Below, one piece after another: positions 37,111-46,158 of a stretch of DNA of 64,000 nucleotides. The stretch is from contig CAMNXF010000001.1 in NCBI GenBank assembly GCA_946567425.1, forward strand, positions 62,001-126,000, given 5' to 3'. A program made the position numbers and the translations under genes. Below the pieces are notes generated by a model that made no database searches, was not told the origin of the DNA, and worked only from the letters and a program-made list of their open reading frames with translations. Positions within the stretch are counted from its first letter, which is position 1, and each line of letters begins with the position of its first letter. This stretch comes from an uncultured Clostridia bacterium. GTDB lineage: Bacteria > Bacillota > Clostridia > Oscillospirales > Ruminococcaceae.

Positions 37111-37139
37111 TTGACAACACGGCAAAAAAAATGTATAAT
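37111..37139 (+). promoter_or_regulatory. sigma-A promoter of the cobalamin-riboswitch operon
   Basis: Perfect TTGACA and TATAAT with a 17-base spacer, directly upstream of the riboswitch. Confidence 0.92.
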
Positions 37140-37149
37140 ATAGTTTGGC

Positions 37150-37340
37150 GGCATATTCGGCGCGGCAATGATATATTTTATCTCGGAACACGGTGTAAAT
37201 CCGTGACAGTCCCCGCTGCCGTGAATCGGTTGCGATTTTGTCGAAGAATGAAAATTTGGGTCACTGGCATTTGTTGGGAAGGCTTGGCAAAATTGCGTTA
37301 ACCGTAAGTCGGAAGACCTGTCAGCCGAAGCCGCACAAAA
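37150..37340 (+). ncRNA. cobalamin riboswitch
   Basis: The core of the B12-sensing aptamer is recognisable: a GGTGTAAATCCGTGAC block with the following CAGTCCCCGCTGCCGTGA at 37192-37224, a CACTGG element at 37262-37267 and the AAGTCGGAAGACCTG block at 37307-37321. These correspond to the conserved 'GGGAA..GGTG..AAATCC..GAC.G.CCCGC..CTGTGA' and 'AGTCAGGAGACCTGCC' parts of the family. The ribosome binding site (about 37347-37352) follows the last conserved block at once, which favours translational control, with B12 lowering expression. Confidence 0.92.
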
Positions 37341-37360
37341 ATTATCGGAGGAATAATACG

Positions 37361-38185
37361 ATGAAAGCAAGAAAATTATTGGCAGTGATCGCCGCGCTCG
37401 GTGCGTCGGCGGCATTTTCGCTGAACGCGTTCGCCGAGCCTGCGGCAAAAGGCACGGTGTATTTCGCGGCAGTGAAGTCGACTATCGGACAGGGCGTTTG
37501 CGTTGAGCCGACGGCTGTTCCCTTTTACGAGGGAGACGGCGGGATTGACGTTGTGAAACGCGCGGCTGAGGTCACGGTTCAGGAGAGCGAATATGGTGAT
37601 TATATCACCGCGTTCAAGGACGAGGACAACGGAGCGGCAGTTCCCGACGAGATCAAGGCGGCATGCACCGATATGTCGGGCAGAAATACACAGGGTCAGC
37701 TTTCCGCGCTCGATTACACTCCCGAAAGCGGTTGGAGCTACTTCCTTAACGGCGAATACGCGCAAGTCGGAATAAGCGATTACACGCCCGACGACGGCGA
37801 CGTTCTGGAATACAGATTTACCGTTTACGGCTACGGCGCCGATCTCGGACAGGATAACTCAAGTTGGGGCGGCGCGGCGGCTATCGTACCCGCAGTCAAC
37901 GCAAAGGAGCTGATCAAAGCGGCTGCCTTAGCGGATAAAACTTCCGACGAATATAAGGCGGCGATTGAGGCGCTCGGCAAATTCGGCGCGCCGCAGAGCG
38001 AGCTTGACGCTGCCGCAAAGGCTCTTTCAAACGCGTCGGAAACGTCCTCGGCAGCGGAAAGCTCAGAGCAGACAAGCGTTCCCGATACAAACAGCGTAGA
38101 TACCGGTGTTGAGAGCGTCGCGGCGGTATTTGGCGCGGCAGCGCTGGCGCTCGGAATTATCGCGGTTTCGCGTAAGCGTTCATGA
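37361..38185 (+). CDS. secreted DUF4430 (transcobalamin C-terminal-like) protein with C-terminal anchor
   Basis: A 274-residue surface protein: signal peptide cleaved after AFA near residue 25, one DUF4430 domain (30-165; SGWSYFLNGEYAQVGISDYT, DDGDVLEYRFTVYG), a helical Ala/Ser/Glu-rich stalk and a C-terminal membrane helix ending RKRS. DUF4430 is the domain named for its likeness to the C-terminal half of transcobalamin and intrinsic factor. Because the gene is under a cobalamin riboswitch, a role in corrinoid capture is strongly suggested. The anchor resembles sorting signals (VDTG before the helix) but has no LPxTG. Its stop overlaps the next start (ATGA). Confidence 0.85.
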   Translation: MKARKLLAVIAALGASAAFSLNAFAEPAAKGTVYFAAVKSTIGQGVCVEPTAVPFYEGDGGIDVVKRAAEVTVQESEYGDYITAFKDEDNGAAVPDEIKAACTDMSGRNTQGQLSALDYTPESGWSYFLNGEYAQVGISDYTPDDGDVLEYRFTVYGYGADLGQDNSSWGGAAAIVPAVNAKELIKAAALADKTSDEYKAAIEALGKFGAPQSELDAAAKALSNASETSSAAESSEQTSVPDTNSVDTGVESVAAVFGAAALALGIIAVSRKRS

Positions 38186-39954
38186 TGAAAACGTTCAGAA
38201 CCTGTACCGATAGCCTGAAACGTTTGGATTGCGAGCATAATTTTGCCGCTTTCAAGGAAAAGCGACGCAGGCGCACTGTGTGTGAGCCAAGGAGCTTTGA
38301 CGCAGAAAGCGGTATAATTTGCCGCAAGACAGGCGTTGAGCGGCTATTGGCACAGGTTCTTATTACAGCGGTTTGCATTGCGTTGATTATCGCGGTGCAA
38401 ACCGTATTCTGTATTGCCTCGGCGGATACCTCGGATATTATCGGGGAGCTTTTCGCGCTAAATATGAAAGAACGCGGCACAGACGATTTTTACGATGAGC
38501 TTCACCTCGGAGACGCGGACTGGACGGCGTTCTGCCGCGCTCGGCTGTACGGCGCGGAAAATTCGGCGGCGTTTGTCGAGAGCGCGAAACATTCTGCGAA
38601 GGAGCTTGCCGGCGCGGAGGGATTTGTCACGCCTACCGAGCTTCAGCGCGCGGCCGTGGTGCTGTCGGCTTATGGGGAATGTCCGCGCGGGCTGATAAAC
38701 GCCGCCGCCTACCGCAATACGAACTTGGACAAACAGGGAGTAAACGCTTGGATATGGGCGCTCATCGCGGCAAATTGCAGCGGTCTCGAAGCCGAAAACG
38801 GCTCTCCTCATACCCGAACCGAACTTGCGGAGACGCTGATTGCAAAGCAGCTTCCCGACGGCGGCTTTGCCTTGCGCGGAGACGGAGCAGACGCGGATGT
38901 TACCGCGGCGGCGATCTGCGCTCTTGCTCCGCTTGACAAAAACGAAAGCGTCAAGGCGGCTCTGGATAAAGCGGTTTCCGCGCTGTCGGGACTTCAACAG
39001 GAAAACGGCGGTTTTCTTTCGCTCGGGAACGAGGTCTCGGAGAGCACGGCTCAGGCAATAATTGCGTTTACGGCTGTCGGCGTTGACGACGGACGGCTTG
39101 AGCGTGCCGTTTCGGCGCTGATGAATTTTCGCTGCGACGGAGGATTTGCTCATACCGTCGGTGGAAAGTTAAATAAAATGGCGGCGGCGCAAGCGTTACA
39201 GGCGTTTACGGCAGTGGAGCTTGCGGAACGCGGAGAACGTCTGTTCGATCTGTCCGCAATTCGGGACGAACCGCAAGACGAATTGAGCGTGGAAAGCAAT
39301 TCAAACGGAAACGCCGAAAGCAGTTCCGAACCTCCGCAAAACGAAAGCTCTTTTGACAACGGCGAAAGCGTCGGCTTTACGGGTTTTCACATTAAGCTGA
39401 TAATTTCGGCGGCGCTTGGCGCGGTTGGCGCTGTTGTGCTGATCGTCAGTATCGCTAAGCGCGGAAAAAAGAGCGTTGTTATCGGTATTGCGGCGCTGGC
39501 GCTTGCAGGAGGCGTTTGGTTGCTCGATATCCGAACGCCCGAAGAGATCACTGCTGAAGTAACGGAAAACGGCATAACGGTGCGCGTTGGCGCAGAATGC
39601 ACAAGCGTGCTCTCACGTATTGACGGCATTGACGAGGACATAAATCCGTACTCGGCAATCCCCTCGGACGGCATAATTTTGCCGCTCGTCGATGTAACTC
39701 TGCCCGAGGGCGCGACTGCATTCGACGCGCTTGATACGGCGGCGCGCGCTAAAAAAATACCCGTTGACCGCGTCGGTTCGACGTTCGGAGTTTATGTGCG
39801 CGGCATAGGCAACGTATATGAGTTCGGATTTGGCGGTGAAAGCGGTTGGACTTACCGCGTAAACGGTATTTCGCCACATATCTCGGCAGGCACATACAAA
39901 CTGTCTGAGGGGGATATAGTGGAGTTTGTCTATGTTTGTGAACTTGAACGATAA
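38182..39954 (+). CDS. membrane protein with alpha/alpha-barrel and C-terminal DUF4430 domain (intrinsic factor-like layout)
   Basis: A 590-residue protein. Residues 54-77: membrane helix. Residues about 150-345: repeated helical pairs of the prenyltransferase/squalene-cyclase alpha-alpha barrel type (IAKQLPDGGFALRGDG, GLQQENGGFLSLG, MNFRCDGGFAHTVGG). Residues about 402-421 and 427-444: a membrane hairpin with a basic turn KRGKK. Residues 455-590: DUF4430 with ESGWTYRVNG, LSEGDIVEFVYV. The positive turn places barrel and DUF4430 both outside. Animal transcobalamin and intrinsic factor also combine an alpha6/alpha6 barrel with this kind of beta domain to clamp B12. It overlaps the previous gene by 4 bases. 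A corrinoid-binding role is inferred. Confidence 0.8.
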   Translation: MMKTFRTCTDSLKRLDCEHNFAAFKEKRRRRTVCEPRSFDAESGIICRKTGVERLLAQVLITAVCIALIIAVQTVFCIASADTSDIIGELFALNMKERGTDDFYDELHLGDADWTAFCRARLYGAENSAAFVESAKHSAKELAGAEGFVTPTELQRAAVVLSAYGECPRGLINAAAYRNTNLDKQGVNAWIWALIAANCSGLEAENGSPHTRTELAETLIAKQLPDGGFALRGDGADADVTAAAICALAPLDKNESVKAALDKAVSALSGLQQENGGFLSLGNEVSESTAQAIIAFTAVGVDDGRLERAVSALMNFRCDGGFAHTVGGKLNKMAAAQALQAFTAVELAERGERLFDLSAIRDEPQDELSVESNSNGNAESSSEPPQNESSFDNGESVGFTGFHIKLIISAALGAVGAVVLIVSIAKRGKKSVVIGIAALALAGGVWLLDIRTPEEITAEVTENGITVRVGAECTSVLSRIDGIDEDINPYSAIPSDGIILPLVDVTLPEGATAFDALDTAARAKKIPVDRVGSTFGVYVRGIGNVYEFGFGGESGWTYRVNGISPHISAGTYKLSEGDIVEFVYVCELER

Positions 39955-42953: not shown

Positions 42954-42989
42954 ATTTTTCAACAGATGTTGGGGAACGGAGGTTTTCAG

Positions 42990-44180
42990 GTGAACAAATA
43001 CTCTTATGTCGCCACTGATATCAACGGTCGTACCATCAGAGGACAGGAACTTGCAGAGGACAGCAAGGATCTTCAGGCAAAACTCAAAGAGCGTAAGATC
43101 TACCTCACAAGCTACCGCGAACTTGGCGGGGGCGTTGTTGATGTCAAGTACAAATTCAAAACCAAGGAGGTATCCTTCATCAGCCGTCAGCTCGCTTCCA
43201 TGACTTCTGCGGGTCTGTCGCTTGTAAGAGCGCTACACATTCTGCAGGAGCAGCAGGAGAACAAAAAGGCGAAAGCGGTGCTTCTGGATATCTACGAGGA
43301 GGTCCAAAAGGGTAAATCTTTCTCCGACGTTCTTGCGTCAAAGCCGGGCGTTTTCCCGGGAATGTTCGTAAGTATGGTGGCAGCCGGCGAGGCTTCGGGT
43401 ACTCTCGATCAGATGCTGAACAGATTGTCTGACCACTACGCAAACGCAAACAAGACCGCCAACAAGGCGAAATCTGCAATGGTCTACCCTATGGTTCTGC
43501 TGGTTTTGCTGCTGGTTGTTATCGTATTCCTTTTTGCGGCGATCCTGCCGAGCTTCGCGGGATTGGGCGATCCGAGTACATATTCCGCGCTTACAAAGGC
43601 GTTGCTGGCGTTCTCCGATTCGCTGGTAAACCAATGGTATGTATACATTATTGCGATAGTCGCGATAATCGTTGTTATTTTTGTGTGTCTGCGCACTCCG
43701 TCGATAAGGTTGAAGATGGACGAGATGCTTTTGAAGGTCCCGAAAGTCGGCAAGCTGATGGCGACGATCTACACGGGCAGCTTCGCGAGAAATATGTCGA
43801 ACCTCTACGGCGCGGGTCTGCAGATGGTCGACTGTATCGAAAAGTCGGTATCGGTTGTAAACAACTCCTATGTTCAGAAGCGGTTTGAGGATGTCGTCAA
43901 CGACATAAAGCTCGGTGAGAGTATGTCGAAGGCAATCGAGAAAACGGGAATATTTGAGGGTATGTTTACCTCGATTATATTTGTCGGAGAGGAATCCGGT
44001 ACGCTGGATACGATCCTTAACAAAGCGGCGGATTATTACGAGGAAGAGGCGGATTCCGCTATCACAAAGCTGGTAGGCTTGATGGAGCCTTTGATGATCA
44101 TTATCATGGGTATCGCGATAGGCTTGTTCCTTGCCGGTATGTTCCCGTTGCTCTACGGCAGCATGACCAATATCACTTGA
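42990..44180 (+). CDS. pilC: type IV pilus inner-membrane platform protein PilC
   Basis: A 396-residue GspF/PilC protein that couples motor ATPases to pilin assembly. Two homologous halves are visible (FISRQLASMTSAGLSLVRAL and FARNMSNLYGAGLQMVDCI), each with the GEASGTLD / GEESGTLD motif, and membrane segments near 170-195, 215-240 and 365-390. Start is the GTG at 42990, with GGAGG 7 bases upstream; an ATG at 42966 lacks such a site. First gene of the cluster. Confidence 0.95.
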   Translation: MNKYSYVATDINGRTIRGQELAEDSKDLQAKLKERKIYLTSYRELGGGVVDVKYKFKTKEVSFISRQLASMTSAGLSLVRALHILQEQQENKKAKAVLLDIYEEVQKGKSFSDVLASKPGVFPGMFVSMVAAGEASGTLDQMLNRLSDHYANANKTANKAKSAMVYPMVLLVLLLVVIVFLFAAILPSFAGLGDPSTYSALTKALLAFSDSLVNQWYVYIIAIVAIIVVIFVCLRTPSIRLKMDEMLLKVPKVGKLMATIYTGSFARNMSNLYGAGLQMVDCIEKSVSVVNNSYVQKRFEDVVNDIKLGESMSKAIEKTGIFEGMFTSIIFVGEESGTLDTILNKAADYYEEEADSAITKLVGLMEPLMIIIMGIAIGLFLAGMFPLLYGSMTNIT

Positions 44181-44220
44181 TCCGGAAGCGTTTCGGACAA
44201 ACAAACCCGGCAAAATCAAA

Positions 44221-44488
44221 ACGGAGCGCAGTTGTCAAAAAGTGAAGCAGAGGAACAAAGTAACAGTTGCGAACTTTTTTGAAAAGCGTTGCTGCGCGAC
44301 AAAAATAAAACGGAGCGCAGCAGCCAAAAAAGTGAAGCAGAGGAGCGAAGTGACGGTTGCGAACTTTTTTGAAAAGCGTTGCTGCGCGACAAAAATAAAA
44401 CGGAGCGCAGCAGCCAAAAAAGTGAAGCAGAGGAGCGAAGTGACGGTTGCGAACTTTTTTGAAAAGCGTTGCTGCGCGACAAAATCTA
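44221..44488 (+). repeat. three tandem ~90-bp palindromic repeats between pilC and pilM
   Basis: Units begin with CGGAGCGCAG at 44222, 44311 and 44401 (periods 89 and 90). The second and third are nearly identical; the first has diverged. Each unit can fold into a long hairpin: GCGCAGCA with TGCTGCGC, and AAAAAAGT with ACTTTTTT. Both strands stay open to translation, but no gene is likely. Confidence 0.9.
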
Positions 44489-44505
44489 AATTATGAGGTG
44501 AAGAT

Positions 44506-46158
44506 ATGCTTTCAATAGACATTACCGACAGACAAATCAAGCTCGTAAGAGGCGTTCACAGCGGTAACAAGATAAGAGTACAGGACGCGGATATGCGCGA
44601 ATTGTCACTCGGCATGGTTTCAAACGGTTATGTTACCGACGTTCCCATGGTAGCGGCAGAACTTAACGACATCATCAAGAGCAAGGATATTAAGGAGAAA
44701 GAGGCAATAGTTTCCATTACCTCGAGTTCGATCGTCTACAAGGAAATGATCGTCGCAAAGCCGAAGAATATGAAGAACCCGGCTATCATCGAGGCGATGA
44801 TCCAGTCAAATATGAACGTCTCCAACGACTTCAACATATCCTTTACTATAGCGGGCGAGACCGAGGACGCAGAGAAGAACAAGATGCTCAAGGTCATCGC
44901 GGCGGCTTGTCCTCAGAGACTGGTTGACGGATATGTAAGACTGTTCTCGCACATCGGACTGCAGCTTAAGGGCGTAAACATCTCCAACAACTCCGTAACG
45001 CGCCTTATCCTCAATACCCCGAAGCTGGTAGAGAGAATGCCGATCTTGCTTATTCAGATCGACAAGAGCTTCCTCAACATGAACCTGTATGAGGAGGGTC
45101 AGCTCGCGTTCTCGCGTTTCTTCAACATTGACCCGAACGATTACGAAAACGCCCCCGACTATGTAAGCCGCGCGGTTTACGATAATCTGTTCAGAATGCT
45201 TCAGTTCATCAGATCGCGCAAAACTGAAAAGCCGCTTCAGGAAATTTTGTTCTACGGCGACATTGAGAGCTTCTCGGAAATTACCAACGCGATCTCGCAG
45301 TTCAACGTTCCGGCGAGCGTATTTAAGATGCCGAGCTCGATCATCTCAGGCACAGAACAGGATCTTGTGAAGTTCGCGAACGCTGTTGGCGCGCTCTACC
45401 GCCGCAACAAGGAGCTTGAGCATATCAACCTGCTGGAGGCTACCTCCGCGAAAGAATCCAAGGGCGCGAATTCGTTCCTGCTGGCGCTTGTGGGAGGCAT
45501 CGTCGCTTCCGCGGCGGTAGTCGGCGGCGCTGTTCTGGTATGCGATTTTATTAACAACAACATTAAAAAGGAAATAAGCTCGCTCGACGCAAAGATCAAT
45601 GACCCGGGTATGCAGAACGATCTGAAGATCGTTGCCGAAAGAGACGCCATGCTTGCGGGCTTTAACAGCTATAACGATACCGTCAACAAGACAGGTTTGC
45701 TGTTCGATTATCAGCCCAAGGTACAGAAATATGTGTTCGACAAGGTGAGCGAGCCGCTTACCAACACCGAGGATAAGCTTCTTCAGACTAATGAACAGCT
45801 TGAGATTGAAAATGTTTCCGTTTCCAATTACGATGTTACGGTCACGTTCAGAGGTCTATCACAGGGCGATCCGTCCTCTATTCCGTCCAGATACGCGGAC
45901 TACCTTACAAACAAGGTTCTCGACAAATACGGCGACCCGTATTTCGTGAACGTTTCGTACACGGGCTTTACGAAAGACAATGTTACCGAATGGGGTACAT
46001 ACGCTATCATCTCCGCGGACGGCAAAAGAACGTATGATACGATTTTCTCGTTCAGCATGACAATGCAGCTCAAAATGGGCAGCGACGAGGAGAACGCAAC
46101 GATCGATCTTAACGCGTCAGAGCCGGAGAGCGAAGGAAATCAGGAGGTGACTGAATAA
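44506..46158 (+). CDS. pilM: PilM-PilN fusion protein
   Basis: A 550-residue protein in which an actin-like PilM domain (1-300; MLSIDITDRQIKLVRG, later LLIQIDKSFLNMNLYEEG) is joined to a PilN-like part: the INLLE peptide near 305, a membrane helix (about 318-345), coiled coil and a small alpha/beta domain to the end. In most species PilM binds the cytoplasmic INLLP peptide of a separate PilN; here the two are one chain. The product links the cytoplasmic and membrane parts of the pilus machine. GAGGTG precedes the start. Its stop overlaps the next gene (TAATG). Confidence 0.85.
   Translation: MLSIDITDRQIKLVRGVHSGNKIRVQDADMRELSLGMVSNGYVTDVPMVAAELNDIIKSKDIKEKEAIVSITSSSIVYKEMIVAKPKNMKNPAIIEAMIQSNMNVSNDFNISFTIAGETEDAEKNKMLKVIAAACPQRLVDGYVRLFSHIGLQLKGVNISNNSVTRLILNTPKLVERMPILLIQIDKSFLNMNLYEEGQLAFSRFFNIDPNDYENAPDYVSRAVYDNLFRMLQFIRSRKTEKPLQEILFYGDIESFSEITNAISQFNVPASVFKMPSSIISGTEQDLVKFANAVGALYRRNKELEHINLLEATSAKESKGANSFLLALVGGIVASAAVVGGAVLVCDFINNNIKKEISSLDAKINDPGMQNDLKIVAERDAMLAGFNSYNDTVNKTGLLFDYQPKVQKYVFDKVSEPLTNTEDKLLQTNEQLEIENVSVSNYDVTVTFRGLSQGDPSSIPSRYADYLTNKVLDKYGDPYFVNVSYTGFTKDNVTEWGTYAIISADGKRTYDTIFSFSMTMQLKMGSDEENATIDLNASEPESEGNQEVTE

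What the first reader, a model, noticed from the sequence alone, without database searches (positions are those of the whole stretch)
37111..39954. B12-riboswitch operon for a bacterial intrinsic factor/transcobalamin-like corrinoid capture system
A cobalamin riboswitch controls two coupled genes (ATGA overlap). One product is an anchored DUF4430 protein; the other joins an alpha/alpha-barrel to a DUF4430 domain, both predicted outside the membrane. Animal B12 carriers use the same pair of folds (alpha6/alpha6 barrel plus this beta domain) in one chain. DUF4430 is described by its likeness to the transcobalamin C-terminus. No BtuCDF, ECF or cob genes accompany the pair, so it would be a surface B12-trapping module of a Gram-positive cell, passing corrinoid to a transporter elsewhere. 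The binding role is inference.
Basis: partly seen in the sequence, partly recalled or inferred. Interest (0 to 1): 0.8.

Follow-up and report, generated by a model that had tools for sequence, protein, structure and literature searches.

The report
Bacterial vitamin B12 trap, riboswitch-controlled
A gut-type bacterium carries a B12-sensing RNA switch in front of two surface proteins related to the carriers animals use to absorb vitamin B12; they most likely trap B12 outside the cell for a B12 importer encoded elsewhere in the genome, a role predicted in 2007 for which I found no experimental test.

Summary
A perfect sigma-70 promoter, a cobalamin riboswitch (RF00174, 61.9 bits, the only one found in the genome) and two genes lie at 37111-39954. 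Gene 1 is a DUF4430 protein with export and anchor signals. Gene 2 is an alpha/alpha toroid, a two-helix membrane hairpin and a DUF4430 domain. Correction: a 174-bp dispersed repeat (38192-38365) sits in frame at the start of gene 2.

An ECF T gene follows within 3 kb in 54 of 80 named relatives; 38 of 50 have a cobalamin riboswitch at the locus. Here the ECF module is elsewhere (contig C13). Its S component matches one solved chain at E up to 1: CbrT, a proven B12 S component (6FNP). The genome has a MetH-like B12 protein; CobS and BtuC were not found. In the genus, trap genes and FecCD permeases are nearly exclusive.

It is not a new kind. Burroughs et al. 2007 (PMC1796856) predicted toroid+SLBB surface proteins with CbiO/CbiQ as B12 scavengers and proposed that animals acquired them from Gram-positives. 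Unusual here: the switch sits only on the trap, and trap and transporter seem to come from different lineages.

The parts
37111..37139 (+). sigma-70-type promoter, TTGACA-17-TATAAT
   Evidence: (12 of 12 consensus matches; 5 promoter-like sites in the scanned region against a mean of 1.8 in shuffles)
37185..37317 (+). cobalamin riboswitch aptamer (RF00174, model positions 47-167)
   Evidence: 61.9 bits, E 6.5e-13; only one found in the genome
37348..37355 (+). Shine-Dalgarno-like GGAGGAAT before the ORF1 start codon
   Evidence: read from the sequence
37361..38185 (+). ORF1 (P0001, 274 aa): signal-peptide-like N-terminus, DUF4430 domain, C-terminal SVDTG plus hydrophobic tail plus RKR (SPxTG in 8 of 11 aligned relatives)
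37712..37819 (+). DUF4430 match in ORF1 (residues 118-153)
   Evidence: E 9.7e-8
38182..39954 (+). ORF2 (P0002, 590 aa): alpha/alpha toroid, membrane hairpin, DUF4430; overlaps the ORF1 stop by ATGA
38192..38365 (+). 174-bp dispersed repeat in frame at the start of ORF2; adds about 58 codons before the conserved signal/anchor helix
38422..39336 (+). alpha/alpha toroid region (Prenyltrans match at residues 180-327 inside it)
39397..39531 (+). two hydrophobic helices joined by KRGKKS (residues 406-450) between toroid and DUF4430
   Evidence: 39 of 39 aligned fusion proteins have two or more hydrophobic segments there by a simple scale
39709..39933 (+). DUF4430 / transcobalamin C-terminal-like SLBB domain (residues 510-584)
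   Evidence: E 6.9e-13

Best explanation
The two genes encode the extracellular corrinoid-capture part of a CbrT-type ECF vitamin B12 importer. When adenosylcobalamin is low the riboswitch lets both genes be expressed. ORF1 is exported and held at the wall or membrane by its C-terminal tail. ORF2 holds an alpha/alpha toroid and a DUF4430 (SLBB) domain outside the membrane on a two-helix hairpin. Toroid and DUF4430 bind a corrinoid between them, as in transcobalamin, and pass it to the ECF transporter encoded on contig C13 (EcfT plus a two-ATPase/CbrT-like S fusion). Shown by computation: riboswitch, domains, hydrophobic segments, conserved linkage to ECF and riboswitch in relatives, CbrT-type S component in the same genome. 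Inferred: corrinoid binding, the two-domain sandwich, hand-over to the C13 transporter, and repression by B12.
For: Riboswitch and domains. EcfT less than 3 kb downstream on the same strand in 54 of 80 named loci; 7 more end too soon to tell. Cobalamin riboswitch at the locus in 38 of 50 given. Own ECF locus G000:C13: EcfT, duplicated ATPase, S component; the S component matches only 6fnp_A among solved chains at E up to 1 (5.8e-8), and the family profile gives 6fnp_A 4.6e-22 against 1.2e-4 for the one other chain; 6FNP is ECF-CbrT, shown to import cobalamin and cobinamide (PMC5997447, passages). Trap genes and S component in 61 genomes: 24 with both, 2 trap only, 1 S only, 34 neither, Fisher p 1.3e-13; trap and FecCD in the 37 genus genomes: 1, 19, 11, 6, p 2e-4; relatedness not corrected. 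MetH-like B12-binding protein present; CobS and FecCD not found. Pfam's eukaryotic cobalamin-binding model run on 148 genomes of the class gives 5 matches in 4 genomes, and all 5 lie just behind a cobalamin riboswitch; one is a full riboswitch-toroid-DUF4430-EcfT-ATPase-S operon.
Against: No binding or expression data. In this genome trap and ECF are unlinked, and no Rfam riboswitch was found at the ECF locus. ORF2's toroid does not match PF01122; its best solved matches are squalene-hopene cyclases, and the DUF4430 profile finds no transcobalamin chain up to E 10. L. delbrueckii ECF-CbrT works as reconstituted without such partners (PMC5997447, passages). Two genomes with the trap (G020, G026) show no S gene of this kind, and G027 of the same genus has T, ATPase and S without trap genes or riboswitch found. 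Over all 61 genomes the exclusion with FecCD is weaker: 4, 22, 17, 18, p 0.013, and FecCD is not specific for B12. Six of 20 genus genomes with trap genes have no Rfam-scored riboswitch within 5 kb, in some because contigs end. The repeat insertion might impair export of ORF2.
Confidence: 0.8

Rival explanations
1. The pair captures a related but different ligand, such as cobinamide, another cobamide or a lower-ligand base, rather than complete B12.
For: ECF-CbrT carries cobinamide too (PMC5997447, passages); a reviewer of PMC1796856 warned that the ligand range may be broader.
Against: CobS was not found in this genome, so cobinamide could not be completed by the usual CobS route (pathway recalled); the S component is closest to CbrT.
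Confidence: 0.12
2. The pair feeds a different transporter (shared ECF module with an unseen S component, or an unknown permease), and the C13 ECF module does something else.
For: Trap and C13 ECF are unlinked and of different lineages; most examined genus relatives have a solitary S component, which would have to use a shared module; G027 has a C13-like module without trap genes found.
Against: Relatives of the C13 module with the same ATPase-S fusion lie next to trap genes behind a riboswitch (e.g. L160, L179, L183); the only other EcfT found lies in what looks like the general ECF module; no second S gene of this kind in the genome.
Confidence: 0.12
3. ORF2 is an enzyme (terpene cyclase or prenyltransferase-like) that shares the toroid fold.
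For: Best Pfam and PDB matches of the toroid are prenyltransferase and squalene-hopene cyclase families.
Against: The cyclase motif DxDD (motif recalled) is met by 0 of 39 and 0 of 32 aligned toroids, which mostly read DxD[hydrophobic]TA (one reads AVDDTA); predicted extracellular placement; DUF4430 fusion; B12 riboswitch.
Confidence: 0.03

Closest known systems
Transcobalamin-like SLBB surface proteins of Gram-positive bacteria (Burroughs et al. 2007, PMC1796856; DUF4430 of Pfam)
   Same: alpha/alpha toroid joined to the transcobalamin C-terminal domain, signal peptides and anchors, a second SLBB protein in the operon, CbiO/CbiQ (ECF) partners, hosts usually lacking key B12 synthesis enzymes
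   Different: here the trap genes stand apart from the ECF genes, and the B12 riboswitch (a word not found in that paper's main text) covers only the trap; toroid and SLBB are separated by a membrane hairpin
ECF-CbrT B12 transporter of Lactobacillus delbrueckii (PMC5997447, PDB 6FNP)
   Same: the S component on contig C13 is of this family
   Different: L. delbrueckii CbrT shares a general ECF module, and the passages seen mention no extracellular capture protein; here S is fused to a duplicated ATPase
Animal intrinsic factor / transcobalamin (PF01122 + PF14478; assignment to both models partly recalled)
   Same: same two-domain plan (PMC1796856); relatives of this system in the class match PF01122, 3 of 148 genomes over cut-off, behind B12 riboswitches
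   Different: ORF2 itself does not match PF01122; it is membrane tethered and has a DUF4430 partner, ORF1
Bacteroidetes BtuH and BtuG surface B12-binding proteins (PMC8941943, passages; outer-membrane role recalled)
   Same: surface B12 capture feeding an importer
   Different: not compared by sequence here; [quoted passage not shown]

Membership tests
Cobalamin riboswitch RF00174 | covariance-model score over the gathering cut-off, upstream and same strand | tested here: met
   61.9 against 31.5 bits
Cobalamin riboswitch RF00174 | B12-dependent control of the genes | not testable with these tools
   no expression data; no terminator-like site between aptamer and ATG, so translational control is only a guess
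Transcobalamin-like SLBB surface proteins (Burroughs 2007) | DUF4430/SLBB domain | tested here: met
   both ORFs over the Pfam cut-off, ORF1 by part of the model
Transcobalamin-like SLBB surface proteins (Burroughs 2007) | alpha/alpha toroid in the same chain | tested here: met
   ORF2 PF00432 over cut-off; profile match to squalene-hopene cyclase toroids; by sequence only, no structure model
Transcobalamin-like SLBB surface proteins (Burroughs 2007) | export signal and surface anchor | tested here: inconclusive
   hydrophobic segments by a simple scale; SPxTG tail in 8 of 11 relatives, SVDTG here; NPXTG model below its cut-off
Transcobalamin-like SLBB surface proteins (Burroughs 2007) | operon with CbiO-like ATPase and CbiQ-like protein | tested here: not met
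   no ECF gene by the pair in the window; EcfT within 3 kb in 54 of 80 relatives. The paper says 'generally', so this does not exclude membership
Transcobalamin-like SLBB surface proteins (Burroughs 2007) | B12 binding | not testable with these tools
   no assay; structure prediction switched off
Eukaryotic cobalamin-binding protein PF01122 | match to the PF01122 model | tested here: not met
   no match for ORF2 (E up to 1) or the own genome; 1 of 32 related toroids at E 0.0024
CbrT-type ECF transporter | S component of the CbrT family with EcfT and ATPases | tested here: met
   G000:C13; it is not in the window
BtuFCD importer | FecCD/BtuC permease | tested here: not met
   no PF01032 match in the own genome, 91.7% complete
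Squalene-hopene cyclase-like enzyme | DxDD motif (recalled) | tested here: not met
   0 of 39 and 0 of 32 aligned members

The most novel reading that the evidence does not exclude
Trap and transporter are independently exchangeable modules: in this genus the B12 riboswitch has been kept only on the surface trap, while the transporter half varies freely (solitary CbrT-like S genes in 11 of 15 examined S loci of relatives; a dedicated ATPase-S fusion of another lineage in this genome and in G027). B12 status would then tune capture at the surface rather than transport, and a fused, membrane-hairpin form of the intrinsic-factor plan would serve any CbrT-type S component. (Probability set at 0.35, down from 0.4 in my draft, because G027 carries the fusion type without trap genes found.)
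Probability: 0.35. Interest if true: 0.6.

Novelty: new member of a known kind. Interest (0 to 1): 0.48.

Why it matters
The proposal that animals took their B12 carriers from Gram-positive bacteria, and that the bacterial versions scavenge B12, dates from 2007; my paper searches (listings, in a library of open-licence papers only) showed no test of it. This locus and its relatives join the family to a B12 riboswitch and to CbrT, a B12 S component with a structure and assays, so the prediction can be tested with a known partner. It also names a likely B12 capture route for gut Clostridia; [quoted passage not shown]

Tried and rejected
Structure prediction of ORF1 and ORF2 with alignments A2 and A3: switched off, so no fold search; sequence profiles used instead. 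The DUF4430 profile found no transcobalamin in the PDB up to E 10 and the ORF1 profile found nothing convincing: negative. A regular expression for the B12 box was too insensitive (20 of 30 Rfam-positive loci), so Rfam was used through the genome search. RNA folding of the leader (z -1.81) did not settle an expression platform. Rodionov et al. 2009 (PMC2612444) is not held; beyond what PMC5997447 says of it I have only recall. Cyclase/prenyltransferase reading rejected on motif and context.

Counts: of 33 genomes with a match to ORF2 I dropped 7 before the co-occurrence test (G018, G022, G025, G032, G036 match only the N-terminal repeat; G045 and G052 only weak toroid matches), leaving 26. From the 27 genomes with S matches I dropped G001 and G042 (weak), leaving 25. 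From the 23 genomes with FecCD over cut-off I dropped G030 (47-aa fragment) and G041 (borderline), leaving 21; those below cut-off were not counted. Counting G030 would make the genus table 2, 18, 11, 6. In one search contigs were matched by coordinates only, and 5 of the 38 riboswitches (L126, L128, L131, L140, L180) score below Rfam's cut-off; L180's lies just outside the stored locus and L175's lies 4.8 kb upstream of the first matched domain. Several of the 15 S loci lie on short contigs (3.3-6.9 kb in L195, L201-L204), so 'solitary' is less sure there. The named ATPase-S fusions were fetched through their trap genes, so their sitting beside a trap is partly by selection.
Full report
WHAT IS THERE. 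The window holds a perfect sigma-70 promoter at 37111-37139, a cobalamin riboswitch aptamer at 37185-37317 (RF00174, 61.9 bits, E 6.5e-13), a Shine-Dalgarno-like GGAGGAAT at 37348 and two genes, 37361-38185 and 38182-39954, overlapping as ATGA. It is the only RF00174 match in the 2.9-Mb genome, which is 91.7% complete. ORF1 and ORF2 both carry DUF4430 above Pfam's cut-off and ORF2 also the prenyltransferase-type alpha/alpha toroid. They are the only DUF4430 matches in the genome.

ANATOMY. ORF1 has a signal-peptide-like N-terminus and a C-terminal tail SVDTG-hydrophobic-RKR; in 8 of 11 aligned relatives the tail reads SPxTG, which resembles the NPXTG anchor model, matched below its cut-off. 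ORF2 has one hydrophobic segment before the toroid and two, joined by KRGKKS, between toroid and DUF4430; 39 of 39 aligned fusion proteins have two or more segments there by a simple scale. In some relatives the last part is a separate gene that begins with the same kind of helix and 'LDIKTPEEYY' (L184), so ORF2 looks like a fusion of a toroid protein with a C-terminal anchor and a DUF4430 protein with an N-terminal anchor. That is inference from the alignment.

CORRECTION AT THE START OF ORF2. Orthologues begin a few residues before AVCIA. In the window 174 bases (38192-38365) are a dispersed repeat, 85% identical to a copy in relative G014; translated copies occur at many places of this and related genomes, a good part with stop codons. 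It keeps the frame and adds about 58 residues, rich in basic residues, before the signal/anchor helix. Whether the protein starts at 38182, 38185 or at the TTG at 38347 is not decided. The overlap of the two genes is not constant: among the relatives looked at some have a gap and some overlap.

THE FAMILY ELSEWHERE. One scan of genome contigs with an alignment of 14 orthologues gave 535 confirmed relatives, of which the best 80 are held: gut Clostridia, Ruminococcus, Paenibacillus, Sporosarcina, Lysinibacillus and others. EcfT lies within 3 kb downstream on the same strand in 54 of 80; in 7 the contig or locus ends first, in 1 the ECF genes are on the other strand, in 18 none is seen, 8 of these from the window's own group. 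Typical order: riboswitch, toroid and DUF4430 proteins, EcfT, duplicated ATPase, S component. A cobalamin riboswitch lies at 38 of the 50 loci given, 33 of them above Rfam's cut-off.

THE TRANSPORTER IN THIS GENOME. Two EcfT matches exist. One (C7) looks like the general ECF module, beside a truA-like gene (read from the sequence). The other (C13, locus L086) precedes an 892-aa ORF made of two ATPases and an S component. That S component passes Pfam's ECF S models and, among solved chains, matches only 6fnp_A at E up to 1 (5.8e-8); the family profile gives 6fnp_A 4.6e-22 and one other chain, 4hzu_S, 1.2e-4. 6FNP is ECF-CbrT, shown to import cobalamin and cobinamide (PMC5997447, passages). No Rfam riboswitch was found in the 16 kb around the C13 locus.

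CO-OCCURRENCE. Among 61 genomes (own plus 60 relatives), 24 have trap genes and the S component, 2 trap only, 1 S only, 34 neither (Fisher p 1.3e-13; relatedness not corrected). Within the genus (37 genomes) trap and FecCD permease are nearly exclusive: 1 both, 19 trap only, 11 FecCD only, 6 neither (p 2e-4); over all 61 genomes the exclusion is weaker (4, 22, 17, 18, p 0.013). FecCD also covers other substrates (recalled). The riboswitch is within 5 kb of the trap in 14 of 20 genus genomes with trap, and within 5 kb of FecCD in 9 of 12 with FecCD. So within the genus the same kind of switch mostly stands before one B12 uptake route or the other. The own genome has an 805-codon MetH-like frame with a B12-binding domain and five weaker B12-binding matches; CobS and FecCD were not found.

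LINK TO THE ANIMAL CARRIERS. Pfam's eukaryotic cobalamin-binding model (PF01122) was run on 148 genomes of the class. It gave 5 matches at E <= 0.001 in 4 genomes (3 genomes over cut-off). All 5 places have a cobalamin riboswitch directly upstream on the same strand, and one is a complete riboswitch-toroid-DUF4430-EcfT-ATPase-S operon. The choice of places used no riboswitch or ECF information. ORF2's own toroid does not match PF01122; by the profile of its family it belongs with the second toroid protein of that operon (260 bits in L216 against 70 for the PF01122-type toroid).

HOW IT WORKS. Best reading, 0.8: the pair traps corrinoid at the surface and hands it to the CbrT-type ECF transporter. 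Steps shown and inferred are marked in Best explanation. Direction of control follows from the general behaviour of cobalamin riboswitches as OFF switches (PMC11477304, passages); it was not tested. Repression, binding and hand-over need experiments.

WHAT IS KNOWN. Burroughs et al. 2007 (PMC1796856; abstract, part 1 of section 7, sections 8 and 10, and passages) described bacterial toroid+SLBB surface proteins, a second SLBB protein in the operon, CbiO/CbiQ partners, hosts usually lacking B12 synthesis, a predicted role in B12 scavenging, and transfer to animals. Its main text does not contain the word riboswitch. PMC4350170 (one passage) names DUF4430 as the C-terminal domain of fish transcobalamin-like and TCN proteins. 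[quoted passage not shown] My literature searches (listings) showed no experimental test of the bacterial toroid+DUF4430 proteins; the library holds open-licence papers only.

WHAT IS UNUSUAL HERE. In the own genome and in the genus loci L088-L092 and L094-L100 plus L075 no ECF component was seen in the stretch fetched around the trap, while four genus genomes (L070-L073) and G002 (L210) have the unified operon. Of 15 S loci examined for genus and order relatives (L191-L205), 11 have a solitary S gene without EcfT or ATPase in the stretch, and none of the 15 has an Rfam cobalamin riboswitch (several contigs are short). Those 11 S genes form a clade (support 0.996, with G028 inside), while the own S component lies among ATPase-S fusions (clade of 16, support 0.993), nearest to G027, G053 and two named loci with unified trap operons. 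ORF2's nearest relatives are genus members at 63-65% identity. So trap and transporter seem to have different histories here. Against a simple swap in this genome alone: G027 of the same genus has the fusion type too, without trap genes found. Exchangeable modules remain an inference.

VERDICT. Observation confirmed, interpretation supported in outline, not a new kind; a new member of a system predicted in 2007, with an uncommon split of trap and transporter.

Noticed in passing
window 38192-38365; translated copies in G000, G014, G029 and others: A ~174-bp dispersed repeat, open in one frame in some copies and with stops in others, has entered ORF2 in frame and gives it a ~58-residue basic N-terminal extension.
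   Followed up: partly
L206 6175-7096 (G001); by reading also L207 6601-7522 (G031) and L208 4991-5644 (G016): Genus members without the trap have a cobalamin riboswitch before a small unit: in G001 a ~135-aa DUF4430-like protein with an N-terminal helix (E 0.00065, just under Pfam's cut-off) and a ~180-aa membrane protein weakly like an S component (no Pfam match). Possibly a minimal form of the same system.
   Followed up: partly
L191-L196, L200, L202, L204, relatives: Solitary CbrT-like S genes; in these loci a tRNA gene lies about 1.3-2.6 kb away.
   Followed up: no
G057 / L017 75-149 +: In one order-level relative an AdoCbl-II riboswitch (RF01689) rather than RF00174 was found upstream of the trap operon.
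   Followed up: no
window 44216-44540: Short tandem repeats with the peptide NFFEKRCCATKIKRSAAAKKVKQRSEVTVA in ORFs overlapping on both strands, between a type II secretion/pilus-like gene (42966-44180) and the next ORF (names read from the sequence).
   Followed up: no
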